A stretch of DNA of 64,000 nucleotides from Calvatia gigantea. Lineage: Eukaryota; Basidiomycota; Agaricomycetes; Agaricales; Lycoperdaceae. Below, one piece after another: positions 8,840-44,281 of this stretch. The translations under genes were made by a program, and so were the position numbers. The notes under the pieces are model-generated. The model saw nothing but the letters and a program-made list of their open reading frames with translations, ran no database searches and was not told where the DNA came from. The number at the start of each line of letters is the position of its first letter. Position 1 is the first letter of the stretch. The stretch covers positions 3,100,001 to 3,164,000 of the forward strand of contig JACAAK010000001.1 in the NCBI GenBank assembly GCA_025093985.1. The letters run 5' to 3'.

Positions 8840-11121
8840 AATAGTCATTCCTCACCAACGCTCGGGGGGTTGAGATCAATGGTGGCCAGTTTACAGCCAT
8901 TGCTGTCCACAGTCCGAGTGGCCCAACTGGTAAGCTTCATCAACGGGGACAAGCCAATGAACTAATCTCAGCCCAGGCATCGATGTTCTACGCGAAGCAT
9001 CCGCTCCTGGGGCGGCCCATAATTCCTCTGCTCCTTCATACCCCCCTCGATGTTTCCCCGGGAACACGCGAACAATACATTGAAGATATTACGCATTGGG
9101 CTATCCCTTCCCTCGGCGACACCCCCCTCCCTATATACTGGATGAGAGGCCCGGCTGGAGTTGGAAAATCTGCCATCGCTCAGACGTGCGCTGAGAGACT
9201 CCAGAAAAGCGGGAGCGCTTGGTGCTGCGTTCTTCTTCTCAGTCAGCGGGCAACGCAAACCAGAGCAATTCTTCCCCTCCATTGCATATCAGCTCTCTAC
9301 TATCCATCCCGCCTACAGTGATCTTGTCGATAGGAGGATCCGTCACGACAAGACCCTTGTCAGCAAGGCGATGCAGTTTCAATTCCAATATTTAATCGAT
9401 GAACCCCTATGGGAACTGGATGAAAGTGGGAAGGGGATTAGGAAGGGGGTCCAAGTGTTCATTGATGGACTCGACGAATGTGAAGGGGCGGATGCCCAAT
9501 GTGAAATCATCCTGTATTGTTGCCACAGCAGTGTCCGATGGTGTCATTCCCTTGCGCTAGGCTTTCTTCAGCCGCCCAGAGCCTCATATTGAGGACCATG
9601 CTCTCCAGAACCAGCGTAGCACCCCATTGCTACAAGACAATACTCCCGAACTCAAGAGATACTGACAGGAGAAATTGAGCTGTATCTCAGGGGTTGTTTT
9701 GACAACATCCTCCCACGCCACAACGCTTCAGCAAGAACCCCGTGGCCCTCGGGTGAAGAGATGAAGATAGTTGTTAGTGCTGCGGCCGGGTCGTTCATCT
9801 ATGCAACAACAGTTGTTCGATTCGTTCGTCGTCCAGATTTGCTCACGCCTCAGAAGCGTTTACGTGCCATTATTGATGTCATTTTGGATCGTCGTGAACG
9901 TGGCCCTCACACTGATACCTGCACTGACGCACCATTTGCTGAGCTGGATGCATTCTACATGTTGATCCTGCAGCGTGTCCCTACGAAAATCTTTCCATCT
10001 GTCCACTTACTGCTTGCGATCATGTGCCGACTTTGGTATTCGAGTGCAATCTGGGTTGCCAAGCGTCCTGGGGTTGTCTAAAGATGAATTTGAAACTGTC
10101 TATGACTATGTGAATGCTGTTATCCACTTTGTGGACTCAGGCAAAGACCTTGAGCTTGATTTTATCATTGACACCAGCTCCACAAACGCGCAAGTCAGCC
10201 AAGATGTCCTTGGCCCACAAGTTCGTAATCACCTCGGAGGGCAGGTCAGCTTCTATCACAGGTCCTTCTACGACTTCCTCCTTGACCCAGCACGCTCTGG
10301 TAGCCATTGTGTCAAGGCATCGGAGGCGCTAGCAAGGCGCTACCTCAAAATCCATCTCGACTGCGACCGAAGCTTATGCTGGCGCGGCTCAGGTGGGCTT
10401 ACACCAACATATTACTTTTACGCATACTTCTGACCCCTATGCCCCCAGAATTAGTTCTTGTACCTGATGTCCATGATTTGGCGGCCTCCCTTTCCTATCC
10501 CCACACAAGTGAATTGGTCAACTCATTCCTCAAGGCTTGGCTCTATATTCAGGCTGGTGGTGAAGATCCATTCAGGTTCTCTGCATCTCGAGAATCAGGA
10601 GGACTGGGTGTCGGTTGTGATTTTCGCAAGCGCCTGCACATCTACACGAATATGCGGAGCACCGGTCATGTATTTAGCGACATGCTTTGGGGCTGTCAAT
10701 CTCAGAAGAAAGTGCTGGGGGGTACTTACATCCAATATATCTCACCCGGAGGATTTTCTGAATCAGCCGTGGTCGGGTTCAAATCGGTAAATATTTTCAC
10801 TTTGACATATAGTGAATGATTCTGACCACAAATTTTAAGATGATCAAAGAGCGAGAACGAGCAAATGTTATTCGACGACACCACCCCAACTTGACTTCCA
10901 AGGTCAAGTCTCTCTTTCACAACAAACCCGGCGAAGGTGTTGAATCCGCCTTGTATCGCATGGGACATGGTGAGAAGGCAATCTTCTGGTACCGGGAAAT
11001 CAACCACGAGCTGCGATATTACCGGTCGTTGCGTTCAATTGATTTAGCGGAAGGAAAGAAGATATTCCGAGAGGAGGATTTTGATTTCCGGTCGAGTGCA
11101 GGCACAGCTAGTCCGAAATGA
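8840..11121 (+). pseudogene. NACHT NTPase (NLR-like), decayed
   Basis: The translated fragments follow the usual order of Agaricomycete NACHT proteins. They begin with an N-terminal stretch of the type ARGVEINGGQFTAI. After an intron come PGIDVLREASAPGAAHNSS, PGTREQYIEDITHWA, Walker A RGPAGVGKSAIAQT, LGAAFFFSVSG, Walker B VFIDGLDECEG, AAGSFIYATTVVRF, LGLSKDEFE and SFYHRSFYDFLLDP. The C-terminal module contains HPNLTSKVKSL and YRMGHGEKAIFWYREI. The frame is broken repeatedly: an extra C at 9056-9059, a shift near 9214 between ERLQKSG and LGAAFFF, a shift near 9515, an in-frame TAG at 9558-9560 (where Trp is expected), and a shift near 10060. No single start-to-stop product is possible. These proteins are thought to act as intracellular non-self or stress receptors; this copy is dead, unless most of the breaks are sequence errors. 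Confidence 0.85.
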
Positions 11122-17891: not shown

Positions 17892-20198
17892 TCAGTCGAC
17901 AACCACAAGTCCATCGAACGACTTCTTGAACAACGCCTTCTTCATTACATTCAACGGCGTGAACTCATCCTCCTTGTCCTCCATGACCTCTCCCTCTTTC
18001 GTCACTTCAGCCCACTCGTCTCCCTCCTCAATTTCCTCAGCTTCACCCATGAAGACCTTTATCATCGCAGCCGAGAACCCACTCATCATCGCCACGCCTT
18101 TCCTCTCAGCTTCGACCTCGACCGTCTGCGCCCACGTAGACCCACCAGCCAAATTCCAGTACACGATCTCCGGAACATCATACCCGGCTTCCTTATATGC
18201 CTTCTCCACCAGATCGTGATTCGTCTCCCAGGTCTTGGTGTTGGTTTGCGAGACTGCCTCGTTAAATTGCATGTCTGAGAACACGAAGAGTCGCTTAACC
18301 ATATCCTCTTTCGCAATCCTGTGCTGCTTCGCGAGTGGGAGGAGGAGTTTGAGGAATACAGCTTGGAAGTCGGTGTCCATGCCCCAATCCGCTGTCAACC
18401 ATTTTCTCGACCAACTCGCCGAGGCTCGCTTCTTCCAAGTTATCGAGGCGCACAAATTCGGGACTGTGAGAGAAAGTGATGAAACCAGCATTGAACGGAG
18501 GTTTAGCCAAAGAAGCCAACATGAGGGAGAGCGAGACCGATGGGAATATCGGGCTGACGTTTTTCTTGTTGAAATGATTAATAGAACCCATCGATCCAGA
18601 TACATCACAGATTGCCAGAGAATTGTCCAGGGTACCACTCTCTTTCAGCCTCGAAACTAAGGTGCGCCACTGGGCATCAACGACCTTCATTTCCTGCCTG
18701 GCCACAATCGCCTTGGCTTCCGCGACCTTGGGAAACTTCGCATCCCTCTTGCCCAAGTTATCTTGTAAGCGCATAGCCTCCGCAACGAGCTCATGGGGCA
18801 TTAGCGTAGCACCACTGATTTTCCTCTTCCCACTTTCGACATCAATGAGGTATTGCTGGAAGCCTTCCGGGTCGTGTTCGATGAAACGCGTCTTGTTGGC
18901 CGCCATGCAGACGGAAGGAACGCGCGTGTATCGGATCTCCGTCCACCTCTTCGCAGACATGAGAGGCTCAGGGCAGCAAAGAATCTCGCGGAGCGGTTTG
19001 AGGATCCAGTGGCCATAGTAGCTGCGCAGGGTGATACAGTTTTCGCGGTCAGTGGGGATAGGATAGGGCGCGGAGCGAGGCAGAGGACCAATCGCATTTT
19101 GTCCCACGTTTTCAGTGGGTGAGAAGAGGAGCTGACAGATGGCGGTGGAGATGTTGGTTACTCTGTCATGGGATCCCCCGGGAGTCGGCGCCCATTTTCC
19201 AGCGAGGGTGATGCTTTTGAGGAGTTGGTAGTAGCGTTCTTTATCAGCGCTCTTATCAACACTCTTCAGTTCCTGCAGGGCCGCAATGTCTTTACGAAGT
19301 TGTTCGGCGAAGAGGCGAGTTACTGTGATGTATAGTGCCCGATATTTGGGATCGTTGGCAAGCTTCTTAACGAGCCTCTTGTGGAACTGCTCATGAAGCT
19401 CCTTCCTCGTTTTTTGTGCGCGTATGTGTGCTTCCTCTTCGGCCGCCTTGGCCTGCTCTGGCGTCCGGGACTTCCACGGACGCCTGGTCCACCGGTGGCG
19501 ATTTTGAGTTCGTGGATAGTAGTTGTGCAAGAAGGTAGCCTCTCTGGCGATATTGCTGAGCTGATCGCAAGTAGCCAAAGCCAAGATGTGGAGTAGGTCC
19601 TTCCAGTAACCATGAGGACGTGCGACATCCTTGTTCTTTGCCGTTGTGCATGCGGGAGTGATAATCATATGGAGGTTGGACAGGGCAGTGCGTGGATGAT
19701 TATCATAGAGCCAACCAAAAGACCTGAAGGATAAGTTCGTCAGTTACATATATCCTGGTTCTAATTTTAATGTATGGCGGCGCTTACCTGTAGAAGAGCT
19801 CCTTTTCGCCTTTGCCGTCGTGGATACTCCTTATATTCCAGATCAACCTCAAAGTCAGACCAGGATCCTCTGCCCAAGCCCTGGCAAGAGTGTCGTTCAC
19901 TGCCCCTCCGAAGGATACCGCGGAGAGACCATTAAACGCGTCAAGAGTAGCCGAACCCGTGGAGCTGAGGGCAGGGGCACCGTTTTCGGTGTAGGTGCGG
20001 TTGTCAGTCATGAGAGCCGTCATGAGAGGGTTGGTCGGGCCATCATGTTTCACTTTAGCAGTGGTATCGGCCTCTTTTTTCAGGGATGAGGACGTTGAGG
20101 AAGTTGGGATCGAAGAGCTCTGGGATATCTGGGAGGGTGATATTGCGAGAAGTACGCGCGATGGACTGGGCTGCCATGCTGGGGTGGTGAGAAGACAT
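17892..20198 (-). pseudogene. DUF2828 / von Willebrand A protein, copy 1 (two frame breaks)
   Basis: The best-preserved of three copies. The first exon starts at 20198 with MSSHHPSMAAQSIARTS, followed by ITLPDIPELFDPNFLNVLIPE and, after a frame break, TTAKVKHDGPTNPLMTAL. A GT-AG intron separates FYR from SFGWLYDNHPRTALSNL. A 457-codon open stretch covers the helical DUF2828 body and the vWA metal-site motif DVSGSMGS (DxSxS). Two lesions: a run of six A near 20068 where five are needed, and one extra base near 18395 between EKMVDS and DWGMDTDFQ. The C-terminal vWA part (KRLFVFSDMQFNEAV to KKSFDGLVVVD) is therefore out of frame. DUF2828 proteins are widespread in fungi with no settled function; the vWA domain suggests protein binding. 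Because both lesions are single bases, one in a homopolymer, a functional gene with sequence errors is also possible. Confidence 0.75.
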
Positions 20199-21429: not shown

Positions 21430-22766
21430 TTGGGGTGGGCTCACGAAGAGTCGTGTAGGATGCATTTCAAAGTGATATTACATGCAGTATACTAATTTTT
21501 GTGTTTGATGAAGCACATCTTGTTGGTTGCCATACAGATGGAAGGAACATGCGTATACCGGATTTCTGTTCACCTCTTTGCGGACATGAGAGGGCTCAGG
21601 ACAGCAAAGAATCTCGCGGAGCGGTTTGAGGATCCAGTGGCCGTAGAAGTTAAGCAGGATGATACAGTTTTCACGGTCTGCGGGGATGGGGTAGGGTGCA
21701 GAGCGAGGCAGAGGGCAAATCGCGTTCTTCCTGACGTTTCAGTAGGTGAGAAGAGGAGCTGGCAGATGGCGGTGGAGATGTTGGTTACTCGGTCGTGAGA
21801 TCCTGCAGGAGTCTGCGCCCATTTCCCTGCGAGGGTAGTGCTTTTGAGGAGCTGGTAGTAGCGCTTCTGTATCCACGGTCTTGTCAACACTCTTAAGTTC
21901 CTGCAGGGCCATGAAATCTTTGTGAAGTTGGTCGGAGAAGAGGCAAGCCACTGTAATGCATAGTGCTCGATACTTGGGGTCGTTGGCAAGCTTCCTCACT
22001 GAGCCTCTCGTGGAAATGCTCCTAAAGCTCCTTTCTCTTTTCCCGCAGCACATGTGCGCGCATTCTCCTGAGCTGCCTTGACCCGCTCTAGAGTCTGGGG
22101 TCCACGAATGCTTGCCCCACCACGAGTGATTTTGGGGCCTTGGAGCATAGTTATGCAGGAAGGTAGCCTTTTCGGTGATATTGCTGAGCTGATCGCAAGT
22201 AGCCAAAGCCAAGATGTGGATGAGGTCATCTATCCATGGGGGCGGGCAACGTCCTTGTTCTTTAGCGTTGTGCATGCAGGAGTGATAAGCATATGGATGT
22301 TGTACAAGGCAGTGCGTGGATGATTATCATACAGCTAACCAAAAGACCTGAAAGACTAAGTAAGTTTGTCAGTTATATCATTGGTTCTATTTTAGTGTCT
22401 GGAAGCGCGTACCTGGGGAAGGAGCTTTCTCGGCATTTGCCGTTGTGGACACTCCTCATATTCCAGATCAACCTCAAAGTCAGACCAGGGTCCTCGGTTC
22501 AAGCCTTAGCAGGGGAATCGTTCACCAGTTCTCCAAAGGATCATGCAGAGAGACCATTAATCGCGGCAAGAGTAGCTGAACCTGTGGAGCTGAGGGCAGG
22601 GGCGCCATTTTCGGTGTAGGTGCGGTTGTTAGTCATATGAGCTCTCATGAGCGGATCGGTTGGACCAGCATGTTTCGCTTTAGGTGTGGTGTCGGACCCT
22701 TGCTCAGGGATGAGGATGTTGGGGAAGTTGGAATCTAAGAGCTCTGGGATATTCGGGAGAGTGACG
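21430..22766 (-). pseudogene. DUF2828 / vWA protein, copy 2 (fragment)
   Basis: Homologous to the N-terminal half of copy 1: NIPELLDSNFPNILIPEQ, HAGPTDPLM, NRTYTENGAPALSSTG, DPGLTLRLIWNMRS and later KRYYQLLKSTTLAGKW. The vWA half is missing. Its place is taken by about 60 bp matching the 3' flank of the membrane-protein genes (ACATGCAGTATACT, as at 17811 and 46894). Two in-frame stops (after NGLSA and PAKA) and frame changes are present, and the sequence is cut off at about 22766 within the first exon. Clearly dead. Confidence 0.8.
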
Positions 22767-23085
22767 TTGCGGGGACACCTATTTGGCCTAATTTGGTCCT
22801 CGAGTTAGATGAGGAGGTAGGCCATAGCACACTTAACCTCTCTGTCTGAACCAAATGGGGCCAAACAGGTGCTTGCCTCCGGCCATTTCTTGTCTTCTGC
22901 GTCGGAAAAGCGCTTGAACGATATCTACTCATCGTCAACCATCTTCACGTCCTATGTACTTAACGTCTTTGCAAAACACGATCTAAACTCTAGTGAGCCC
23001 GAATAACCGCTTGCCAATAGCCTTGCCAACAGCCTTGCCTCACTCCAACTTTGGATTTCGACCTCGATCCCACAACCTCGGTGCC
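22767..23085. other. 5' flank of the PFKFB-NACHT gene
   Basis: Short region between the truncated DUF2828 copy and the ATG at 23086. No obvious TATA box. The abrupt end of DUF2828 homology at about 22766 marks a rearrangement breakpoint about 320 bp upstream of the fusion gene. Confidence 0.4.
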
Positions 23086-26000
23086 ATGGTCGCACCACTG
23101 TACACAACAGCCTCAGGCTTACTCTTCCACTCCGGAAAGATTCTCGTGCTCATCGTTGGCCTTCCCGCACGTGGAAAAACGCACATCTCGCGAGCTTTGG
23201 AGCGGTACCTACGATGGATGGGTGTGAAGACGCAGGTTGTCAGTCTCGGCGATTACAGGCGAAAAGTCCTGGGTGGGGCACGGAATCTGCCTCCAGACTA
23301 TTTTACGCTTGGTACGTACTGTAAATAAGTGTAGGGTTGTATAGAAAACTGAAATTGGGCCCGGAGTATAGGTGAGAGGTCGCCTGAGACGGAGGGGTTG
23401 AGGAAGATGGTTTCGGAAGGGTGTGAACAGCTTATCTGGGATTTCTTTGAATCCGGTGGGCAAGTCGTGATCTATGATGCAGATAGCGAGACGAGGGCAG
23501 CGCGGGAGGCTTTGGCGGAGAAGTATGACAAGAAAGGAATCCACATAATCTTCCTTGGTAAGTTTGCTTTCGAATTAAATGTCATGTCCTTCCGATTTTG
23601 ACGGTTTTCACAGAATCATTTTGCGATAAGCGGGAGATCATTGAACGTAATATTAGGAGTGTCAAGATCTCATCTCCAGATGTACGTACCATCTTCCGGG
23701 TGTGTAACCTGAGTTGACCAAACGTGCACCAGTACAAAGGATGGGACCCAGATAAAGCCATTCAAGATTACTATCATCGTATCAGGGACCATGAAAAGTA
23801 CTATGAACCAGTTGAAGAACTCGCTTGGCCGTATATTCGGATTATCAACGTTGGAGAGAAACTTCAATTGAATGTCTGTCGCTGAATCATCGACCCTTCC
23901 TCCGTAAGCCTGACATACTCTATATTTAAAGAAAATTAAAGGATACCTCCAAGTACGTCTTTTGTTCTTGAAGGATGAGGTTCAAGGACGAATAGATCCC
24001 GTATAGTCACGAATGGTATTCTTCTTGATGAACATACACAACCGGTTCCGCACCATCTGGTTCGCCCGTGTACGCCCTTACTCGTTTTCCGCCGTGAACA
24101 TGTATAAGGCTCACGTCAATATAGTCTGGCCAGTCACTCATCGAAACCTCATATAAAGCCGATTCGGACCTCTCACCCGCTGGTTGGGAGTACGCCGAAA
24201 AGCTGAAAGACGTCGTCTCACAACGGCGGATGAAGGTCCTGCAAGAACGTGGTTTTGGCCCGGCGCAACGTAAACTCGTCGTAAGTCAATTTCCAGCCAC
24301 ACATGTCTATCTCTCACAATTCACGAACACGGATTAACTCTTGCGATCTGAATTTAGATCTGGACATCGACCCGCCGGAAAGCGCATCACACCGCCTGGC
24401 CGTTCCTTTCAAATCCACTTTCGGATGATGGTATCGATTCTAATCCGGAGGCGGAACTTTCTGGACATCAGCATATTCCAGATGGCGCGGATTTGGATTC
24501 ACCTGCGGCGCCATCCTCACACCATTTCACACCCGACCGTAACGCAACCCCGAATCCGGGCCAGGTTCCTAAAGTCCCAAAGTCTGTCCTGGGAACAGTT
24601 GCACGAGGCGCACTGGTTAACGCCCCTCGTAATGTGCCTGTATCTGACATCATAGCCGACGGTCAGACCCTCGGCCCGAGTACCTCGACGAAACAGGTCA
24701 AGGTAGTGGAGAAGGCGCAGATGTTGGAGATTAATCCTGGAATATGGGACGGTTTGACACTAGATCAGGCAAAGAAATATTATCCAGAAGATTGGGATAG
24801 GCTTATGAAGGATCCGTATTCTTTCCGGGTACCCAGAGCCGAGAGTTACCACGATCTGAGCGGTGCGTTTTTGATTATTGTCGGGTATTTCGAATCTTGA
24901 TGATATATCTGCAAAACTTAGTCCGGTTGGAACCCATACTTATTGAACTCGAACACGAGAGTGAAGATCTTCTTATCATCGGTCACGCATCTGTCATCCG
25001 CTGTCTCCTTGGATACCTCATTGGTTGCCCCGCATCTGAAATCCCAGCAATAGAAATCGCGCGTGGAGAATTGCTAGAGATTATACCGGCATCGTATGGT
25101 GTGCATAGCAAGGCTTTCCGCTTCTGGGATGGACCTGGGCGTAAAGGTGAGGGAAGGAGTGATGATGCTTGCGGTGCCACTGGGAGTGGGGACCAACGGG
25201 GAGAGGACCAAAATAACTTCTATGAGAATTACGCGGAGGATACGAAGGGTAAGGGAACTAGTTTTGAGAAACTCGTGACTGAGGAGAGGAGGCAGCGAGG
25301 CGGCCCCCTCCGGCAACATTCGTTCACCAGCGCTGAGCTGCGCTCTATGGAACGGTTTCCTCCACCGCGATGTCACCCAGGAACACGTACGGAGCTAAGG
25401 ACGGAAATATATTCTTGGTTGGTCAATGGGGATCGAGAACATGACATGCTGTGGCTATTCGGACCTGCCGGCGTAGGAAAATCCGCAATGGCACAAACCA
25501 TCGGAGAACTCGCAGAGGAACATGGCATTTTTGGTGCTGCTATTTTCTTTTCCCGGAGCAGGAAAGTCGACAATTCGTCGCTCTTCGTGACGTCAATCGC
25601 CTATCAACTCGCAGTCCGACGCCCAGTATACGACAACCTTGTTGTCAATGCCATCGAGAAGGAACATGCAATCTCAACGAGCGTGGATCAACGTGCCCAG
25701 TTGAGGAAACTCCTCACTGAACCCTTCAACACTCTCAGGCGCAGGAACAAACACTTGGCCAAGGAACTCATTATCATTGACGGGTTGGACGAGTGTGGGG
25801 ATGAGATAGAACAATTGGATCTTGCGAGACTCATCGTAGATACTGTCGAGGATTTCGATTCCCCTCCTCTTTTATGGCTGATTTGCAGCCGTCCGGAGCA
25901 TCACCTTACGGAATTCTTCCTGGATGGCAGCCTTTCTAAAATCTGCGGGCGACGGGATCTCTTACCTCAGGAACCCGGCGCCGATGCCGACATCGAAAGA

Positions 26001-27237
26001 TACCTGCTTGATGGACTCAAGCGCATCACAGAAAAATATTGTGACCAGCACGATGCAGGCACAAGACTATCTCTGACCCAGGGCTCGGAGACATTAAGCA
26101 AACTTGTCCGCACAGTATCCGGCATGTTCGTTGTCGCTTCATCGATGCTCGCTTTCATCGGCGATCCAGCTATCGCCAAACCAGCTTCCCAACTACAGAT
26201 TGTTCTCAACACCATAGATGGTCTCGTCATGGATGGCAGTGGCCAGAATTTCCTAGCGGCAATTGATGCACTGTATCTAGGAGTACTCCGAGTTCTGGAT
26301 AAAGAAGTCCTAACACAAACACTCCGAATTCTAGGAGCTTGTGCTGTTTCCCCCAGGATGCCCGCACTGCACTTCGCCAACTTACTCGGCATTACCCAGG
26401 CGGTTTTTTATTCCTCCCTTAGATCCTTACATGCATTCCTTTCCGTCCCACACCATACTACCGCGGTTCAGGAATCCTTACACTTCTTCCATGCATCATT
26501 TCCGGACCTTCTGCTTCACCATACGCGTTCAAGGGGAATACTTTCAAGATCGACACACATCGATTCAGGTTGGTTGAAGCATGTTTCCATGTGCTTAATT
26601 CCACCAGCATCACCTATTCAGATGATCTGTCATGGCTTCCTCCAGACCCTAACCAGGACGAAGATGACGCGATTTCACCAGAGTCACCTCTCTCTATATC
26701 ACATGATACCTTGAGCTTAGCCGCTATGCATACTTGGGACCTTTGCACAAGGATATCAAAACCCCGGGAGTGGGATCCCCTCCTCAAAAAAGTGGCTAGT
26801 TTTGACTTCAGGCACCTCCAACCATTTGGTGATGTGTTACCAGTTGGGTCGTTTATCCGTTTCATCAGGTGGATTTACATGTTGGTGGGTAGGATCACAT
26901 GTGATATATGTTTCATTCGTTGATTCAATGTTTAGGGAAAGGAAGTACCGGATCTAACGCACATAGTTCGGACACGCTGTGACTTCAGCACGGACAGGAC
27001 ATTACTGGAGAAGTGCAATACCATTTCACAACCACTCGTACGTTCACAACCTTTGTTGATTCCGTCGAGAACCACTGATCATTGCCCTGTCAGAACTTGG
27101 ATCCTATGGGAGGAATTGACGAATTTGGAAATACCCCCCGCTATGTCTTTGCCGGTTTTAGTACAATGACCGTTATCATCCTTCTTATTCCGGAAGCTGT
27201 GATGATATATTCATTGGAGGATATTAACAATCTGTAG
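23086..27237 (+). CDS. 6-phosphofructo-2-kinase/fructose-2,6-bisphosphatase fused in frame to NACHT NTPase
   Basis: Exons: 23086-23311, 23372-23557, 23614-23681, 23733-23873, 23932-23952 (21 nt, KIKGYLQ), 24007-24069, 24125-24280, 24358-24862, 24922 onward. The first about 565 aa form a complete fungal PFKFB: Walker A GLPARGKTH, SLGDYRRKVLGG, QVVIYDAD, YKGWDPDKAIQDYY, INVGEKL, a long insert, LEINPGIWDGL, IGHASVIRCLL. In the phosphatase half the catalytic His is replaced (ARSGQSLIE instead of RHGE), so it should make rather than degrade fructose-2,6-bisphosphate. With no stop after NFYENYAEDTKGK, the frame continues into FPPPRCHPGTRTE, Walker A GPAGVGKSAMAQT, Walker B LIIIDGLDECG, and LFHFF-type helices (HFFHASFPDLLL). 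A G-run at 26536-26539 is one base short: the frame as written stops at 26714. With one G added it continues through exons ending 26884, 26936-27037 and 27094-27237 to a hydrophobic C-terminus (FSTMTVIILLIPEAV). Whether one transcript covers both halves is inference from the open frame. Confidence 0.75.
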
Positions 27238-28099
27238 GATGTATATACTTTTTTATTTTCGCTTGTTCACTGTCCTAATTGATATCTAAAACATTCTTGA
27301 GATTCAAGTAATCTGTTCCGAGATTCACCGGTGCTTTAGATTCTCACTGACAATGGGCCCTCGAAGTTACCACGGCCACCACCAACGCTATCCTTTGCTC
27401 GTAAAGGCCAAATGTGCAAAACATAAATGCAGAGCAAATGGACCAGCCCTACAACAATTGCTGTGGATGGGCCTAAACATCCACTTTAATGCACTGAGAG
27501 ACCCTGGATTCTGTGGTAGTGCGGGCGCCTAAACTCAGCTAAGTGTTGTGTCAATGTTTGCAAGGCTGCAGAACCTTCTTTCCAGAATGAGACCACCTAC
27601 GGATATGTCTTGACTGTTTGCAGAGGCAGCACAGCCCTACTTCTGGAGGATCATAAATTTTTAAAATCTCTGAAACAGCAGATATTGCATCTCCAAGGGG
27701 CAACAATTGAACTGCTGAGGAAGAAAACACTTGCAACTGGAGTTTTTCAAACACCCAATCAACAATAGCATGATTTTATGCTCACTATCACTGATCCTCC
27801 ACTGTGGGTAGCAATACAGTTTTACGAGACTCATACAATTACAAAGAGTAAGCACATCCATAATTGTGAATATTGCCCATATTGCAAAAACACCAAAGGA
27901 ATCCACTAAAGCAGGTCTATGTATAAAAGCCCAATGCCAGAACACAAAAAGATGCAACTATAAGAGAAACAAATCGACGCAAAACTCGCCATGCAACCCC
28001 ATGAACACCACCACCTGGCTCTACATCACTCACATAAACCTCAACCCCCTCAGTCAACTCACAAAGGCCAATGTCAGCAAGGATATTGTCAAGCTGTGC
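27238..28099. other. Intergenic flank of the retrotransposon nest
   Basis: AT-richer than the gene regions. Minus-strand frames (27661-27957, 27917-28126) run into the solo LTR. They may belong to an old mobile element, but carry no motif I can name. Confidence 0.35.
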
Positions 28100-28644
28100 T
28101 GTTGAGAGAACGAGTAGACATCCCAATATAAGTTCACACTACCTAAGCGTGTAGGCGTCAGCGGTGGAGGGTAGTCGTATTCATCCGGGAGACGGTCCAG
28201 TAGGAGAGGCGCATGGTAGTGGACATTGTCCTGCTTATACCATCGTACTCAGAGAGTCTTGAGGAGAAGGGAAGCGATGCTTAAAGAAGCTAGCGTAGAG
28301 GAGAGAAGACATAGTGTCTTACGCCAGAAGGCGTACCCATAAGGGCCTACATACTACAATGCTACATAGGGTATATATACTAATATCCCTGGTCTGTGCA
28401 CTCTAAACCCTTATACGGGTGAGGTCTAACTCCCAGTAGCATAATGTGAGCATACTGTGCACGTCCGCATGTACTAGAAGGTTCCATGCGTAGTATCTAC
28501 CTGCTACTTACAGTGCGGTATCCTACGTGCGTAGTCCATCAATAGATGTTCGTTATTATCGACCCTCTGAAGGTGAAATACTCGAACCCCGTTTCAGCTA
28601 TAAATAGACTGAACCAACGTAGTGGTACGGAGCGAGATTCAACA
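28100..28644 (-). mobile_element. Solo LTR of copia family B
   Basis: A 545-bp sequence starting TGTTGAGAG and ending GATTCAACA on the plus strand is the reverse complement of the LTR at 30163-30707. It is flanked by a perfect 5-bp target duplication, TGTGC, at 28095-28099 and 28645-28649. No internal region is attached, so it arose by LTR-LTR recombination. It forms an inverted repeat with the 5' LTR of element B, 1.5 kb away. Confidence 0.9.
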
Positions 28645-30162: not shown

Positions 30163-30707
30163 TGTTGAATCTCGCTCCGTACCACTATGTTGGTTCAGTC
30201 TATTTATAGCTGAAACGGGGTTCGAGTATTTCACCTTCAGAGGGTCGATAATAACGGACCATCACGGACTACATACGCAGTAGTTGTACTGCCCTTCTGG
30301 TAGTCGGTTATACCCTCCGCATGGAACCTTCTAGTACATGCGTCGTACATAGTATGCTCCAATTATGCTACTGGTAGTTAGACCTCACCCATATAAGGGT
30401 TTAGAGTGCACAGACCAGGGATATTAGTATATATACCCTATGTAGCATTATAGTATGTAGACCCCTTCGGGTATGCCTTCTGGCATAAGACACTATGTCT
30501 TCTCTCCTCTACGCTAGCTTCACTAAGCATTGCTTCCCTTCTCCTCAAGACTCTCTGAGTACGCTGGTATAAGCAGGACTATGTCTGCTACCATGCGCCT
30601 CTCCTACTGGACCGTCTCCCGGATGAATACGACTACCCTCCACCGCTGACACCTACACGCTTAGGTAGTGTGAACTTATATTGGGATGTCTACTCGTTCT
30701 CTCAACA
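30163..30707 (+). repeat. 5' LTR of element B
   Basis: 545 bp, TG...CA ends, immediately followed by GGTTATGGGCCCC, the same primer-site sequence as in element A. Carries a TATATATAC promoter-like run near 30428. Confidence 0.9.
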
Positions 30708-33700
30708 GGTTATGGGCCCCGACCGCCGCTCACTCAAACTGCGTTAGCAACGCTGGTAGAGTTTGAGGAGGCTACGGTCACTTTCAACCTGGGAGACAGT
30801 GGTGCCTTTGGTCCACTTGATACCCTGTCTGACCCATGTTATGAACGCGTGCACTACACACAGCAGTCCTACATGATGCTGACACGTTGTTACCCGTTCT
30901 TGGTTTTTGATCTGGCAAACCATCATCTTCAGTCTAGTTCGACCACTTTAGGTCCACTCCCCATTCTGGGTTGCAGCAGAACTGTTCCGCTCTGGTTGCT
31001 CCACCTCTGTTCTAGTATTCTCTCTCTGATCGACGACAATGCTTTGGGCTTTCTGGGATTCTCTTTAGATCCGCCTCAGTAATTTACTATATGATGTATC
31101 ATCTACACTGAGCACTGTGCTCCGCTTTGCTGGTGAATTAGCTGGTCTTCATGACCGCAATAATACCGCAGTGTCAGGCAAATTATAAGCCTTGTGTTCT
31201 TGTGTTCCAAGTCGATTGGGCAAGTCCCACCTTGAGTAGAATAACACACCACGAGCATATACCTGAGCTATTTGACCCACTTAAGCTGGCTGTTATAAGC
31301 CGCTAAGGCCTGCTTAATCAAATAAAGCTGGGATATAGAAAATATCTTTGAGAAGTCCGTTGTTTGTTCCTTCGCTTTAAAGCTTTAAAGCTTTACTCCT
31401 TCACATCTATTCGGCTACCGCTTTACTCTTTCTACGGATAGCTCATGCACTTTAAGCGCTTTATGCCATGCTAAGGCAATGGGCTGCCACATTTGCAGCA
31501 CTTACACTGGTATGGAAGACAGTGGCCGCAAGGCTGGCAGCACCAATAAAACCATGGCATTATGCCAATAGCAGCAGCACTTGCAGCATTCGCAAAAATA
31601 TCCAAAGAAGATAGCAAGGAGAAGAACACTAATTGTGTCCTTGCAGCTGGGAAATAAGGGGAGAAGGATAATGAGCTGGTAATACCACCATTATGTCGTT
31701 TCATGAAATACTTCAGAATATAGTTTAAATATGCCGCTGGCTCAAGCGACTGCTGCCATATACTATTTCTCTTATAGAGGAGCTGCATCACTTTATATGT
31801 GCCCTGCTTCTAGCATCAACATTACTTCACTTGTGTTAAGCGCAAGATTACGCGCCCAAGTTTGAAGACCTGTTTTAAGTTAGAGCATGGACGAGCACAT
31901 TAAAATGCTTTGTCTGCCAACTACAGGAATACAATGATTGCTTTAAGGAAGTTTGACTTTATGGAAGTCGCCATCCACGATTAGGACTCGAGCGCACCAT
32001 TTAGCAACTATAATTGAGAAAGAGGATGTGTATAGCACCATACGATGCAACACGCCGACGAATTCCTTAAGAAATCCTTTAGACCGCTCTTTATGGAGCT
32101 TGGCGCCGGAGGAGTTCTTGTGTCGCCATCTTCGGATGTCGCTGACCTTGATACCAATGGAAGGATATACGGTAGTACTTTCGACTTCATACTCCTTGAT
32201 AAATGCTACGAATAACAGTGTGCCATGTGAGATGTAAGCGCTGGCTATAAATCCTTTTCTACACAACAAGTGAGAAATCCTTACAGATCACATGAAGATA
32301 ATAGCGGGAGCACATCGCTCTATTCACTTGAGAAGAATATTCTTTACAGGATCTCATGAATCGCATCATTATAAAGAAAGGAAATTACGACACGTCTAGG
32401 AATTAGCAGAATAGCTCCCAACGTATAACGGTTGAGCTTCAGCACTGTGTCACCAGATTTAATTCTTAGACCTCGCCATTTTACATTAGGCTTGAGGCAA
32501 GAAACTGGAATCCTATGGGAACGACAAGTAGCTGAACTGCTTTTATATTCCAGCATTAGTCTATGACATTAGGGATAAAGATTTGTAACGCCACATTAGT
32601 GTGCGGCCGATCTATATCGAGAAAATCTTATAACGTATGTCCTCGAGTGTAACACTTTTGAGGCAATCATTAAAGGTCACCACTTTTGCAATAAGTCATG
32701 CAGAGCTGTTTTGTTCACCCAATCTCATCATTGTACACGAACTTGCGATTACAAGCAAGGAGATGACTGGTTGTTGAACATTACGCCTACTAGACTATAT
32801 CGTTTGACATCATTGAACAGAATTTCCCATAATTATGTCTTCTCCACTCGTCTTTTACGACTTGTCGAGATGTTGCATTATTTCATCGCCACTCTGGATT
32901 ATTTCACAAGGGAAATTGCATCAGTACCTTTATCCAGAATCTTTTATATGAATATCCTCGTCCTTGAGCATAATACTCGGACTTGATGGAATTGCTAGTC
33001 GTCTATTACGACGCTACTCTATGACCTCTTATCTCATGATGATAGTTGTCCTCCTTTGAAAGAAGTTATGAGGCTCTAAGATTCATTAGAGAAACCTCTA
33101 CAGTATAGCTGACAACGGCCAATGTCGCAACTGATTATGGAGGAGAGTTTGTCTAAATGAGAGCAATAGCAAACATTTGTGGCATGAATAACCCACTTAA
33201 ACCTCCTACTCCCAATGCTTTCGCAACGGTTGATGTAGAGAGACTGATCCGCACTACACTTTGAGAGCCTAAAAGCTTTATGGCAACGGGAATGTCTTAC
33301 CTGTCTCAGTGATAGTTTAAGCATTGACTAGAGCATAACACGCCAGTCCAAGCGTTTAAAAGTGGAAGGCACTTAATTGTGTAAATCAAGGGATAAACCA
33401 TTAATTTGGTTCTGTACTGTGGGTTTGGCTTTGCGGCACATCAGTTAACATGATGACCACCCAAACATGATTGCTTATTCAAGATGTAACATACCTTGAT
33501 TGTTTGATCAACGAGAACTTTCAAGTTCAAGCGGCACACAGAAAGGCTTAACGTTCTACGAACAATCCACATTTGGATGCCTTACTTGATGAGGGAATAT
33601 ACCCTTAAATGTCATGATTCAGCAACTGGATAGCAGTAACCAGTTCATTTGCAAAGAAGAGAGCAAAACCTGCACAAAGCAAGAAGTTGCTACATTTCTT

Positions 33701-38294: not shown

Positions 38295-38407
38295 CCGCCG
38301 CTCACTCCGACCGCGTTTAACAACGCTGGTAGAGTGTAGGAGGCTACGGTCGTACGCAACCTGGGAGACGGTGGTCCTTTGGTCCATTTGATCCCTGTGT
38401 CTGCCCC

Positions 38408-39330
38408 ATGTTGCGACGCGTGCATTACGCACTGCAGTCCTACATGATGCTAACGCATGTTTACCCTATCTTAGATATGTCTAAACCGGCCCCTGCTCCG
38501 CAGGGCTTTGTTCAAACCCCTAGCGGGCAGCTTCCCGTCCTTACTGGGACGGGTAACTACACTATCTGGTCGCTTCGCCTTCGGTCTGCACTTATGTGCA
38601 TTTCCTTAAACGATTGCTCCTGGACCGGATGGGACTTCTCTGGAGCCGTGGACGAACCTGTCCAGTATGAGCAGGCCTATGGACCTGAGCACCCCGCTAC
38701 CCCGGCGACTAGCACTTCGCCGGCACGTCCCGCACGACCAGGAACTCCAATTCCTGCGACTGCTGAGGAACGCCGCAGTGTTGGTATGGCCAACAACCTC
38801 CGGATGCGCGCTCTTGGGTTGATTGAGGCAACTCTCCCCAACAGCATGCTCAAGCATTCCGCCCGGGACGCTCGCGCTCTCTGGTCTCAGTTGCAGGGCC
38901 AATACGGTCTTCCTGGACCAGCTCAGGTCTATAACGAGTTCATTCGTGCTATCACGTTTGAGCTCCCTCTCGGTGGCGATCCCTCGCTCAAGATGAGCGA
39001 GCTCCAGCAGATTTTCGGGCAGCTTGACGCCATGGATAGTGGCATCGCCCCGGAGATCGAAACGATGATCCTCCTCCACTCCCTCCACCCGTCTTTGAGC
39101 CACGTAGCTCAGACGCTCCTCACCTCGAACACGTCGCTCCACGAGCTGACGTGGGATAAGGCCCGAAGCGGCATAATTGCCGCTTACGCCTCCAACCAGA
39201 CTGCCCACGCGCAACGAGCGCGCTTCACTCCACGACAGGGAGGTGGGCAGCAGCAGCAGCAGCAGCGCCAGCAGCAAGGAGGACAGCAGCGACCGCAAGG
39301 TCAGCAGCAACCTTCGGGGTCTAAAAAGCC

Positions 39331-39398
<68 letters not shown>

Positions 39399-42300
39399 CA
39401 TCTGGAGGAGAAGGCGACGGCGAAAAGAAACGCCGCTGGCGCCCTCGAGGAAAAGGAAAGGGCAAGGGAAAGGAGGGAGGTGTGCAAGGCAATGCCGCCA
39501 CCTCTTCCGGTTACATTCAGGACGTGGATTTCGTGTCGCAGGCACAAACTGTGCCGCCACCATCCACTCGATCCCTCGTAGAAGCAACGCGTAGAGCCAA
39601 AGTACCTCCAGTTGCATCTAGCTCCGCCGCCACAGGCAGCAATGCCACTCCGCTCGCGTCGCGCATCACTGCGCCCGAGCCCGAAGCTCGTCGCAAACCT
39701 TCGGTGAAAGCCAAGGTTACCGCCTTGAAGAATTGGGACAAACGTCTCGATTCTATTTCATCGTCGGGTGAGAGTTCGGAGGAGATGTGGAAGCGGTTTG
39801 ACGAAATGGATGTCGATAACAATCCATCCACCGTCACAAGGGAGGAAAACGAGATCGCGTGGCCGGCCCCTGTGTATAACAAGCCGGCGATTATCAAGAA
39901 GCCCAAGCCGCTCAAGAAGAAGCAGGCACCGAAGGAAATCGAGTCTGTCCTCGAGTCGGTCTTAGATGACAACGACTCGGACACCGACTACGGATCCGAC
40001 GGAGGGTGTGGGTCAGTACCTTCAACTGACTATTATTCTTGTTCTGATGTAGAAGAGGATGTGCAGCCCCATCAACGGATGGGACGGGACGATACAGACG
40101 CAGGGACTGTCCGCCTCGGAGCGGGACGCCCTGGAGATTCCGAAGTTGAGTTGGGACGACCAGGTGGCCGCCGAAGAGAGCGGGGCACCTATGCAGATGT
40201 AGCACGTCGTCCACCTCCTGTAGGGACTCGTCGTAGACACCGCTGTACAGACTTTTTGAATTGCAATGTATGCTGGAAGCGCGCCCAAGGCGCTTCTCCT
40301 TCTGCTTATTCCGCTAGTGAAACTAAGCTGGAAAGTAAGATGAACGCTACATATACCGTGAACAATCACGAGTATTCAGACAAGTTAAGGTCAGAACTCC
40401 ATGAAGAGCACGAGGATCTTAATCAGATCATCACATATCACATTTGTGATTTGTCTCAGTGCCAGAAATGTCGAGAAGAAGGGAATAAACATTCTGTGAA
40501 TAACGCAGACTGGCTCCTTGATTCTGGAGCATCGTACCATGTCACCGGTTATCTCTCTGATTTTGCAGAGGTTAAGATGGGCCACTTCGGGCTTATACAA
40601 GCCGCTGGCAACCGGATCTATGAAATGACAGGACGAGGGTCTGTGATTTTCCAGCATGATGTGTCAGACAAGGGAAAGTCCAAGAGCGCTACTTCATGTA
40701 TTGCGCCGGTCTTTTACATCAAAGAAATCACAGAACGGTTAATGTCCTCAGGCCAGATTCTTCGGAACGGCTATGTTCTTGAGGCAACCGTAAAAGGAAC
40801 CACCATCCGTGATAAATCAGGAAGTGCTGTATTATCCGCCTGGCCTCATCGTTTGTTTAAAAACAACGTACATACGGTGCACACGTATGTCTTGCACAAC
40901 AGCAAGGAGAACCCAGTAGCGTTGACATTACGCCAACTTGATTATATCGATTGGCATCGTCGAATGGGACACCCTTCGGATCGCGCGCTCTCCGAGCTTC
41001 CAAAGCACGTTGAGGGCATCGCGTCAATTCCCGCACCATCTACTCGGAAAAGCATTTGCGACGGCTGTGCCAAGGGGAAAATGCATAATAACCCCTTTCC
41101 GATTAACTCCAAGCGAGCCACCGCAGTCTTTGAACTATGTCACTCAGACTTGCTGGAACTGCCCGTCATTAGCTACCACAAATATAAATGGGCGATGACG
41201 TTCCTTGACGACTTTTCTTCTCACGCACATGTAGTCCTCCTTCGAAAGAAGTCTGAGGCTTCTGAGAAGCTCATTCAGCTAATCAGTGCATTAGAGAACC
41301 TCTCCGGAATGCGAGTCAAACGACTTCGCACCGATAATGGAGGAGAATATGTCAATGAGAGGTTATTGGCAGGACTCGCGGCGCGTGGAATTACCCACGA
41401 GACCACTGCTCCCTACGCGCATCAGCAAAATGGGAGAGCAGAGAGACTGAACCGCACCCTACATGAGAAAGCCCAAGCTATAAGGCTACAGGCATGTCTA
41501 CCTGACTCGTGGTGGGAATTTGCGTTGAATACAGCTGTGCATTTATATAATCGCACGCCAGTCCAGCGTCTGCAGTGGAAGACACCTTTTGAGTGTTATT
41601 CAAGGAAAAAACCAAATTTGTCCCATATCCGTGTGTTTGGATGCGGCGTGTACGTATATCTACCCGATGAAATCCGCCCAAACAAATTGTCCGCAAAATC
41701 CGAGATTATGATCTTTCTTGGGTACAAAGGCAGTAAAAATTACGTCTTTATGCGGCACACGGCAGGCAATGTGATCTTTATATCACCAAACGCCTTGTTC
41801 GACAAGGGATATTTCCCCAAATGCCCCAATTCAGTGCCGGATAGCAGTAACCGGCCTAATCACGGAGGAGAGAGAAATCTGCCTAGACCAGGATTAGGGA
41901 ATGAACCACCTATTCCGCCATCTTCGGATGACGCAGGAATTGTTCCACCTCCACCTGATCATCCAATACCGTTACCTCCGGTTGCTCCACCATTCAAACC
42001 GAAATATTCTCCGCCTTCACCTCCTTTACCCCGGCGAGATTCTACTCCGCCAGACAGCATTGATTCACGACGGCCATCACCTGGCAACACACCACCTTGG
42101 GTTCCCCCACCTGAGTCGCCACCTTCGCGTGGAACGACCGTTGAGGAGGAGCCTGATGTACGTGATAATTGGCATATGGACAGAGATGTATGGGATACCG
42201 AGAACGAGGAATTCCCAATCCCTGTTCCCAAACGTCGAGCTGTTGGTTCTGATCAGGTAGAGCCGCGTCGTTCTGAACGACAAGGCAGGCCTCCCGTCAG

Positions 42301-44281
42301 ACCAGGTAATACATATGGAGACAACAGGTGTCCAATTTCGATTGAAAGAGAAATAGACCGGACTCACCGACAAGAGCAGCAGAGGCAAAGGCAGCGCGTA
42401 CGCGCCAATGCCCCTCCAGACGAAATTATTCGTGAGCGTAGAGCAAGGACTAACCATCCTGAATATGTGAGGCAAAGAGTTCGTGCTCAGCGGTACCCGC
42501 CACAACCCTTTGACCTGCCTCCATTTCAGCTCCCTCCACGTCCGGAACTGCCGCCTATGCCTGAAAACAATGATCCAACATCTCACGATGTAAACGACAT
42601 GGACATTGAAAGGCTTGTCGCTGAGGGAGGAGTAAAGTTGATCGATTTCTTGATACAGACGGTACATAATACCGCACACGGAGAGCCTGAAACTTTCCGT
42701 GACATGCTTAAGCTTCCTGAGCCTGTCAAGGCAAAATGGATGGCTGCGTGTATCGAGGAACTCGACGCATTGAAAAAACGCGGAGTATATGAATTGGTAG
42801 ATCTTCCGAAAGGAAGGAGGACGGTTAAAAACCGTTGGGTATTTCTCGAAAAGTCTGACGGCCGCCTGCGAGCTCGCTTGGTTGCGAAAGGGTTCTCGCA
42901 GATTGAAGGCATCGACTACAACGAGCTTTTCTCACCAGTTGTCCGCTACGAGTCCGCGCGCGTAAGCTTCGCACTCGCTGCAATCCATGATTGGGATATG
43001 CATAGCGTTGACGTAAAAACTGCCTATTTATATGGCAAACTGGACGAGGAAATATACATGGAACAGCCCGAAGGGTTTCGACTTCCCGGGCAGGAAGGAA
43101 AAGTATGGAGACTCAGACGAGCGATTTACGGCCTCAAACAAGCCGGTCGCCAGTGGTGGAAAGAATTGCATCAATCTATGATTGAGCTGGGATTTACCCG
43201 CTGCAAATCCGACTACGCTGTGTATTTTCACAGACATCCAAAGACGAAAGAGCTTGTAGTAGCCATTGTCTACGTTGATGACGTGAATTTCTTGGGAAAG
43301 AAAGACTCCCCCCTCCTCAAAGAGTTGAAGGGAAAGTTCACCAAAAAGTGGGAATGCAGAGACCATGGTCCCTGTGAAGAATTCCTTGGGATGAAAATCT
43401 CGAGGAATTGCTCCAAGCGTCAAATCTTCATCCAACAGGTGAAATACCTGGATAAGATCTTGCAGCGCTTCCAGGTTCCGCAGTCCGCCGCGGCTAAAAC
43501 GCCATTACCAGCTGGCTTCCAATTCGTAACGAATAAGGAAACTGCATCGCACCCCTTCCGTCAAAAGTACCAACAATTGGTTGGATCTTTAATGTACTTG
43601 ATGATCGGTACTAGGCCCGACATAGCCTTTGCCGTAGTTAAGCTGGCACAGCATGCCGCTAACCCCGCACCCGAGCACTATCGCGCTGGAATTCATGTAC
43701 TAAAGTACTTGTCTATGACAAGGAACTATGCATTGAAATATGAAGGCGATACTGGGAAATCCGCGGTGACGCTGGAATGCCTTAGTGACTCGGACTGGGC
43801 TCAAGATACAGAAACCCGCCGATCTGTTTCGGGAAACGTTTGTATGATCGCGTCCGGTGCTGTCACTTGGACTTCGCGGCGACAAAAGACGGTTTCACTA
43901 TCGTCCACTGAGGCGGAATATAAAGAACTGTCTGACGCTTCACGACAAGTGAAATGGCTGTCACAGCTTCTGGAGGAGCTCAAAATTGAGCACCCAACTC
44001 CTATTCTCTACGGTGACAACGATGGGTCCAAATTCTGGACTGAAAATCCCATTGTTGAAAAACGATCGAAGCACGTGGATATTCATTACCACTATGTGCG
44101 AGAATTAGTCGAGGAGGGTATTATTGTTATTGGTGATGTGTCTTCACAAGACAATCCCGCCGATATCTTTACAAAGAATCTTGGTGTAACCAAAATCAAT
44201 CTCTTCCGCCCTGAACTTGGATTAATATTTGGTTCCGATATCGAAGCATGGGATAAAACCGCTCGATCGATGAAACGTTAA
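38408..44281 (+). CDS. Copia gag-pol polyprotein
   Basis: One uninterrupted frame of 1957 codons; translation may begin at the later ATG near 38478 (MSKPAPAPQGF). The gag part has a long Gln tract of about 22 codons (CAG repeat near 39331-39393) followed by a basic KKRRWRPRGKGKGKGK block where a zinc knuckle would normally sit. Pol order is copia-type: protease WLLDSGASYHVTG (about residue 700), pre-integrase CDGCAKGKMH, integrase D-D-E (HSDLLELP, LRTDNGGEYV, QNGRAERLNRT), reverse transcriptase (NRWVFLEKSDG, VDVKTAYLYGKL, YVDDVNFLG at about residue 1622), RNase H (DSDWAQD, SLSSTEAEYKEL, NPADIFTKNL). All catalytic motifs are intact, so it is potentially autonomous. Confidence 0.95.

What the first reader, a model, noticed from the sequence alone, without database searches (positions are those of the whole stretch)
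24922..26540. Metabolic enzyme PFKFB continues in frame into a NACHT (NLR-type) NTPase
The last PFKFB exon (GHASVIRCLL, NFYENYAEDTKGK) has no stop. The same frame runs about 100 codons later into FPPPRCHPGTR and the NACHT Walker A GPAGVGKSAMAQT, giving one open exon of more than 1.6 kb. PFKFB looks complete and kinase-competent; the NACHT part lacks only its usual first exon. A fructose-2,6-bisphosphate-making enzyme tethered to a STAND-type receptor would be a new integrated-domain NLR architecture. It could be a guard of a glycolytic regulator or a metabolite-sensing receptor. I know of no described protein of this kind.
Basis: partly seen in the sequence, partly recalled or inferred. Interest (0 to 1): 0.88.

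Follow-up and report, generated by a model that had tools for sequence, protein, structure and literature searches.

The report
Enzyme copy fused to NACHT receptor
In a mushroom-family genome, a spare copy of a sugar-metabolism enzyme gene runs without a stop into an immune-receptor-type NACHT gene; the join is in the assembled DNA and looks like the latest swap in a receptor line that earlier carried another cell enzyme, but whether the joined protein is made or works is unknown.

Summary
The in-frame PFKFB-to-NACHT exon is in the sequence (frame 24801-26714; modelled protein 1,052 aa). It joins two duplicated pieces. A nearly whole PFKFB copy (22878-25265) has a sister on contig C2 that reads 21 codons further and stops. 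A NACHT module has its nearest sister elsewhere on C2. That sister follows a Yak1-type kinase copy in frame, and the window keeps about 20 nt of the Yak1 tail at the seam (19 of 20 identical to the Yak1 gene). I read this as an N-terminal swap: Yak1-NACHT became PFKFB-NACHT. Pairwise dN/dS is 0.13 and 0.25 for the halves, with no stop or frameshift up to 26530.

The NACHT frame breaks at 26531-26551, losing at least 114 C-terminal residues, and its half shows no more constraint than its broken sister. No PFKFB-NACHT protein is among listed database hits. Fungal NLRs with integrated host-gene domains are already proposed (CHK-2 decoys), so this is a new variant of a known kind. Expression and function are untested.

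The parts
22878..23085 (+). 5' flank of PFKFB shared with the C2 copy (retained upstream stretch)
   Evidence: blastn homology to L044 begins at 22878, alignment
23086..23311 (+). PFKFB exon 1 (ATG; Walker A GLPARGKT)
   Evidence: model; same intron position in the C2 copy
23372..23557 (+). PFKFB exon 2 (YDADSE in place of YDANN[G/S])
23614..23681 (+). PFKFB exon 3
23733..23873 (+). PFKFB exon 4 (its donor GTCTGT is unusual but shared by the C2 copy)
23932..23952 (+). PFKFB exon 5 (21 nt)
24007..24069 (+). PFKFB exon 6
24125..24280 (+). PFKFB exon 7 (Ser at the phosphatase His site)
24358..24862 (+). PFKFB exon 8
24922..25265 (+). PFKFB part of the fusion exon; homology to the C2 copy ends at 25265, no stop
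25266..25283 (+). 18 nt of unassigned sequence at the seam (6 codons, in frame)
25284..25303 (+). Remnant of a Yak1-type C-terminal tail, 19 of 20 nt identical to the Yak1 gene (16 of 20 to the C2 Yak1-NACHT copy), same frame
25304..26530 (+). NACHT module in its native frame: CHPGTR lead-in, Walker A, Walker B, HASF motif
25461..25484 (+). Walker A GPAGVGKS
   Evidence: read from the sequence; Pfam NACHT and NPHP3_N
25767..25793 (+). Walker B LIIIDGLDE
   Evidence: read from the sequence; DGLD columns invariant in the family alignment
26531..26551 (+). Frame break relative to two paralogs: one base more at about 26531 and two fewer after about 26551 (placement depends on the alignment)
26532..26714 (+). 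Out-of-family tail to the stop codon (26712-26714)
26552..26893 (+). Former NACHT C-terminal coding sequence, 114 codons still open in another frame but not read by the fusion frame
25307..27284 (+). Extent of the blastn match to the C2 NACHT sister

Best explanation
This is a chimeric gene in a 46-Mb agaric genome whose PFKFB is closest to Agaricaceae. It arose by N-terminal replacement inside a NACHT-NLR line: an older Yak1-copy-NACHT fusion had its Yak1 part replaced by a duplicated PFKFB gene, joined coding tail to coding tail. Shown here: the DNA, a sister for each half, the Yak1-type remnant, and low pairwise dN/dS for both halves. Inferred: it is read as one PFKFB-NACHT protein of about 1,050 aa from the upstream stretch kept with the PFKFB copy, because the seam left no stop, no intergenic space and no NACHT start of its own beyond an internal ATG. 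Most likely function, inferred and weaker: the PFKFB half keeps its fold but not its kinase motif and acts as a built-in bait (integrated decoy) whose disturbance lets the NACHT ATPase oligomerise. The present allele has lost the NACHT C-terminal region and may be truncated or dying. My odds: chimera by swap 0.9; one protein made 0.6; bait function 0.35.
For: Homology to the C2 PFKFB copy stops at 25265 and that copy ends with its own stop. The C2 copy sits beside an RRM-type gene (read by eye), and two database models hold RRM plus 6PF2K (P0050, P0056), which suggests the ancestral neighbourhood. The nearest NACHT sister is preceded in frame by a Yak1-type kinase copy; the best match to that copy outside its own locus is a gene at C1:1183-1185 kb. 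19 of 20 nt of that gene's tail lie at the seam, in frame, and 0 of 20,000 random 45-mers of the window PFKFB locus share 12 nt with the Yak1-NACHT border region of the C2 copy. A metagenome NACHT protein (P0077) has the same tail, 46 of 78 identical. PFKFB pair: dS 0.53, dN/dS 0.126; of 77 differences 40 fall on the window branch, 10 on the C2 branch, 27 unplaced. NACHT pair: dS 0.495, dN/dS 0.249. Neutral simulation: 2,988 coding nt stay free of stops and frameshifts with probability 0.11 at 0.02 substitutions per site and 0.018 at 0.04, substitutions alone, against about 0.26 per branch from dS/2 (0.17 from introns).
Against: No RNA evidence. The NACHT C-terminus is frame-broken. Since the split, placed amino-acid changes in the NACHT half number 30 on the window copy and 25 on its C2 sister (34 unplaced), although that sister is broken by five single-base insertions; so the window NACHT shows no more constraint than a pseudogene and its low dN/dS may be mostly older. 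No relative with this architecture among 120 listed of 279 and 120 listed of 765 hits. The selection signal may predate the fusion, whose age I could not date apart from the duplications. A GTAAGG donor-like site at 25249 could splice the seam in or out of frame. The Yak1 remnant is short.
Confidence: 0.52

Rival explanations
2. PFKFB and NACHT are made separately: PFKFB by splicing or polyadenylation near 25249, NACHT from the internal ATG at 25347.
For: GTAAGG donor-like site at 25249 with several AGs downstream; an in-frame ATG just before the conserved FPPPRCHPGTR.
Against: No intergenic space between the halves, and the PFKFB stop and 3' region of the C2 copy are absent.
Confidence: 0.08
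3. Enzyme-effector NLR: the NACHT clusters and switches on PFKFB to raise fructose-2,6-bisphosphate.
For: The N-terminal position is the effector slot of fungal NLRs, some of which carry enzymes (passages of PMC9815663, and PMC4986451).
Against: YDADSE in place of a motif kept in 183 of 183 relatives; four-fold more placed changes than the sister.
Confidence: 0.04
4. Assembly misjoin of an unrelated PFKFB copy and NACHT copy.
For: Not testable without reads; both sister genes on contig C2 show single-base insertions, so base-level errors exist there or those genes are damaged.
Against: The halves differ by 13-19% from the closest copies found, the join is in frame for both genes, and a Yak1-type remnant lies between them.
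Confidence: 0.01

Closest known systems
Fungal NLRs with CHK-2/PRD-4-derived kinase domains (putative integrated decoys), Sordariales, PMC12258605 (passages seen)
   Same: A copy of a conserved host regulatory gene fused in one reading with a NACHT-type NLR, the parent gene kept elsewhere.
   Different: [quoted passage not shown] here PFKFB is N-terminal, found once, no C-terminal repeats were found, and the NACHT end is frame-broken. PFKFB and Yak1 are different host genes.
N-terminal domain swaps between fungal NLRs with highly similar NODs, PMC4986451 (passages seen)
   Same: Similar NACHT modules with wholly different N-terminal parts, explained there by recent fusion events.
   Different: The swap rows seen in the passage are between recurrent fungal effector types; here the exchanged parts are copies of cell enzymes (Yak1-type, then PFKFB).
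Agaricomycete NACHT proteins of the NPHP3_N/NACHT type (P0077, P0205, P0207 and others)
   Same: Same NACHT core, CHPGTR-type lead-in and HASF-type motif.
   Different: N-terminal part replaced by PFKFB; C-terminal region lost to the frame break.
Macrolepiota fuliginosa P0036, a PFKFB copy read on into a protein kinase (database gene model)
   Same: A second, fast-evolving PFKFB copy extended in frame within a few residues of the same DTKGK point.

Membership tests
PFKFB / 6-phosphofructo-2-kinase | 6PF2K and histidine-phosphatase domains over Pfam cut-offs | tested here: met
   201.3 and 73.0 bits
PFKFB / 6-phosphofructo-2-kinase | Intact kinase-site motif DANN[G/S] (role recalled, not from a call) | tested here: not met
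   YDADSE; 183 of 183 database proteins with GLPARGKT have YDANNG or YDANNS
PFKFB / 6-phosphofructo-2-kinase | Phosphatase His (RHG), for bifunctionality | tested here: not met
   Ser here and in 10 of 10 fungal relatives aligned; human PFKFB3 has RHG
Fungal NACHT NLR (STAND) | NACHT domain with Walker A and B over cut-off | tested here: met
   PF05729 29.5 bits over 26.7, PF24883 75.8 over 24.8
Fungal NACHT NLR (STAND) | N-terminal effector domain of a known type | tested here: not met
   PFKFB occupies the slot
Fungal NACHT NLR (STAND) | C-terminal sensing region | tested here: not met
   Frame break at 26531-26551; no repeat domain in the Pfam scan
NLR with integrated decoy (sense of PMC12258605) | Domain duplicated from a conserved host gene and fused to the NLR | tested here: met
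   Window/C2 PFKFB pair and in-frame seam, at DNA level only
NLR with integrated decoy (sense of PMC12258605) | One transcript and protein | not testable with these tools
   No RNA data
NLR with integrated decoy (sense of PMC12258605) | Maintained across strains or species | tested here: inconclusive
   No PFKFB-NACHT among listed hits; a Yak1-type tail before NACHT occurs in this genome and in metagenome protein P0077
NLR with integrated decoy (sense of PMC12258605) | Bait function against an effector | not tested
   Needs experiment

The most novel reading that the evidence does not exclude
An agaric NACHT-NLR line that serially exchanges whole regulatory enzymes copied from the host (Yak1, then PFKFB, perhaps a third gene at C45) as N-terminal baits. 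The PFKFB copy is a kinase-dead decoy that lets the fungus detect attack on glycolytic control.
Probability: 0.22. Interest if true: 0.88.

Novelty: new variant of a known kind. Interest (0 to 1): 0.6.

Why it matters
Integrated decoys are established for plant NLRs (recalled) and recently proposed for fungi (PMC12258605, passages). A fungal NACHT that has carried two different host enzymes in turn, with the sister genes, a remnant of the swapped-out part and the seam all readable in one genome, would let the exchange be followed step by step. If the fused protein is made, it would suggest that glycolytic control (fructose-2,6-bisphosphate) and a growth kinase are worth guarding in mushrooms. 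If it is not, it is still a clear example of NLR N-termini being recruited from ordinary host genes.

Tried and rejected
Rejected or left open. An ATG22-like gene (named by eye) upstream of a NACHT at C6 looked like a further fusion, but it has its own stop. A duplicated gene of unknown kind upstream of the NACHT at C45 would need an intron to join, so it is unproven; no Pfam match. Leucocoprinus models joining dynactin-6, PEMT or a hydrolase with NACHT look to me like merged gene models; for dynactin-6 a usual NACHT lead-in sits in between. An intron that would bridge the NACHT frame break: 8 candidates, each taking out residues that paralogs keep, donors poor by eye.

The solved-structure search with the NACHT alignment gave only two weak hits, E 0.0081. 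Paper searches: 15 listed of 424; 7 of 7; 12 of 17; 12 of 118; 10 of 3,515; no listed title or abstract start reports PFKFB-NACHT or Yak1-NACHT. PMC9815663, PMC4986451 and PMC12258605 were seen as passages only; 'phosphofructo' occurs 0 times in each main text, 'Yak1' 0 times in PMC9815663.

Limits. Upstream DNA was taken for 10 other family members, the C2 sister among them, of 106 matches. In one search I listed frames of 55 aa or more near the NACHT; that output was cut, and I then read three of the ten more fully. Frames of six others or parts of them went through Pfam: only NACHT-type matches, at C1:3571 kb; the region at C67:113-119 kb was judged by eye only. Database lists show 120 rows each. 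dN/dS is Nei-Gojobori with Jukes-Cantor correction; branch placement uses few outgroups. The simulated 2,988 nt run 15 nt past the frame break. The names Yak1, ATG22, RRM-type neighbour and TKL are recalled or read by eye, not returned by a call (Pfam gave Pkinase and PK_Tyr_Ser-Thr).

Mended on checking: one part coordinate, the count of codons before the C2 stop, wording on the 20 departures, the intron candidates, the NACHT branch counts (left out before); the best explanation's confidence went from 0.55 to 0.52 and the chance-chimera rival from 0.32 to 0.35 because of those branch counts.
Full report
Observation. The window lies at G000:C1:3100001-3164000 in an assembly of 45.95 Mb and 77 contigs. 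The frame 24801-26714 is open for 637 codons. A nine-exon model with GT-AG introns starts at ATG 23086 and reads without a stop from PFKFB into NACHT, 1,052 residues as assembled. Pfam finds 6PF2K, His_Phos_1, NPHP3_N and NACHT in that one protein, each over its cut-off. The best PFKFB hits with names are from Macrolepiota, Leucoagaricus, Agaricus and Leucocoprinus, so the fungus is probably in or near Agaricaceae; no call named it.

The PFKFB half is an extra copy. A second copy lies at C2:910-913 kb; homology runs from window 22878 to 25265, 81% overall and 87% in the last exon. All eight introns of the model have a counterpart in the C2 copy. After the last shared residues the C2 copy reads 21 codons and stops; the window copy does not. 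Upstream of the C2 copy is an RRM-type gene (by eye), and two database models join an RRM domain with 6PF2K (P0050, P0056), so I take C2 to be the ancestral site. A third, distant 6PF2K gene is at C77. The C2 copy as assembled holds one base too many compared with relatives, which makes a stop. If that is real and not an assembly error, the fusion carries the only intact gene of this type found.

The PFKFB half has changed. Of 306 columns invariant in nine relatives, the C2 copy departs at 1 and the window copy at 20, plus one gap that comes from where I cut it. Of 77 differences between the copies, 40 fall on the window branch, 10 on the C2 branch and 27 cannot be placed (two-sided binomial p 2.4e-5 for 40 against 10). 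Pairwise dS is 0.529, dN 0.067, dN/dS 0.126; introns differ at 125 of 468 aligned sites. The window copy is thus relaxed, but the pair is far from neutral. The motif after the kinase aspartate (role recalled) is YDADSE; all 183 proteins with GLPARGKT among the 306 database proteins held have YDANNG or YDANNS. Walker A is intact. The phosphatase His is Ser in the window copy, the C2 copy and 10 of 10 aligned fungal relatives, while human PFKFB3 has His.

The NACHT half belongs to a large family: 88 Pfam NACHT matches and 106 protein matches, lower bounds. The nearest sister by DNA is at C2:331-333 kb, 82%. Against that sister and against C1:3570-3572 kb the window copy has one base more at about 26531 and two fewer after about 26551. 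Up to there its indels against the C1 paralog are multiples of three; beyond, the family's frame stays open in another register for 114 codons to 26893, so the break looks recent. The fusion frame ends at 26714 with residues foreign to the family. The HASF-type motif (His 475 of P0077 is invariant in 45 aligned sequences) is kept; the region after it is lost. Pairwise dS to the C2 sister is 0.495, dN/dS 0.249. A result against constraint: placed amino-acid changes are 30 on the window copy and 25 on the C2 sister, with 34 unplaced, although the sister is broken by five single-base insertions; placed synonymous changes are 27 and 24. The window NACHT has therefore not changed more slowly than its broken sister.

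The Yak1 link. The C2 NACHT sister is preceded on the same strand by a kinase gene whose catalytic part matches Pkinase (118 bits) and whose best match outside its own locus is a gene at C1:1183.5-1185.3 kb, 62-84% by exon, open over the parts I saw. I name it Yak1 from recalled sequence features; no call returned that name. The copy's tail runs in frame into the NACHT lead-in before a later frameshift. The metagenome protein P0077, 70% identical to the window NACHT, begins with the same tail (46 of 78 identical), so this fusion probably predates the split of two species. In the window, 25284-25303 equals the tail of the C1 Yak1 gene at 19 of 20 bases, in the same frame, at the Yak1/NACHT border, against 16 of 20 for the C2 copy; 0 of 20,000 random 45-mers of the window PFKFB locus share 12 bases with that border region. 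The simplest history is a Yak1-NACHT gene whose Yak1 part was replaced by a PFKFB copy, leaving six codons of unknown origin (25266-25283) and about seven codons of Yak1. dS is alike for the PFKFB pair (0.53), NACHT pair (0.50) and Yak1 pair (0.59); the values are too rough to order the events.

How general is it? I took the upstream DNA of ten other family members, the C2 sister among them. Only the C2 sister shows a clear captured gene. At C45 a duplicated gene of unknown kind (a partial copy, 44-55% identical, lies about 8 kb away) abuts the NACHT and could be joined through an intron. At C6 an ATG22-like gene ends with its own stop. Frames upstream at C23, C67, C74 and C1:3571 kb gave no Pfam match other than NACHT-type ones; one more region was judged by eye. 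So two captured host genes are supported in this family here (PFKFB, Yak1-type) and one more is possible.

Function. In a neutral simulation from the present sequence, 2,988 coding bases stay free of stops and frameshifts with probability 0.35, 0.11 and 0.018 at 0.01, 0.02 and 0.04 substitutions per site without indels, and lower with them, while each branch carries about 0.26 synonymous changes per site (half of dS) or 0.17 by introns. So the reading frame was kept by selection until recently. Either the fusion is younger than that, or the fused frame itself has been kept; the data here do not separate the two. If a protein is made, its PFKFB end sits where fungal NLRs carry effectors; since the fold seems kept but the kinase motif is not, a bait seems more likely than an enzyme. 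This is inference. The loss of the C-terminal region and the NACHT branch counts argue that the present allele may be impaired.

Known kinds. The passages I saw in PMC12258605 describe fungal NLRs with CHK-2-derived kinase domains as putative integrated decoys, and those in PMC4986451 describe N-terminal swaps. So the kind is known; PFKFB and Yak1 as the captured genes, the N-terminal position and the readable serial swap are new as far as my searches show. No PFKFB-plus-NACHT protein is among 120 listed of 279 or 120 listed of 765 hits, and none in the listings of paper searches. A parallel is P0036 of Macrolepiota: a second PFKFB copy read on after DTKGKRI into a protein kinase, the only such model among 120 listed of 464 hits.

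Noticed in passing
   Followed up: partly
L044 (C2:906500-914500), minus strand, PFKFB exon 8: The presumed ancestral PFKFB copy has one base too many against its relatives, giving an in-frame stop; real lesion or assembly error is open.
   Followed up: partly
L058 (C45:2582000-2587500): Another NACHT of the family directly follows the tail of a duplicated gene of unknown kind, with a partial copy about 8 kb away.
   Followed up: partly
window 18298-19743 and 21570-22323, minus strand; also 46980-47849 minus: DUF2828-type genes, two of them in a direct repeat spaced about 2.63 kb just upstream of the PFKFB copy.
   Followed up: partly
window 38333-44278 +: A single 1,982-codon copia-type retrotransposon frame with gag, integrase and reverse transcriptase domains.
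   Followed up: no
window 28099-28644 and 30163-30708: Inverted repeats, 94-98% complementary, 1.5-1.9 kb between the arms, shortly after the fusion gene's 3' end.
   Followed up: no
window 60335-62233 +: A frame with glutamine amidotransferase and chorismate-binding domains.
   Followed up: no
window 9620-10078 +: A frame that looks by eye like a NACHT-family fragment, without a Pfam match.
   Followed up: no
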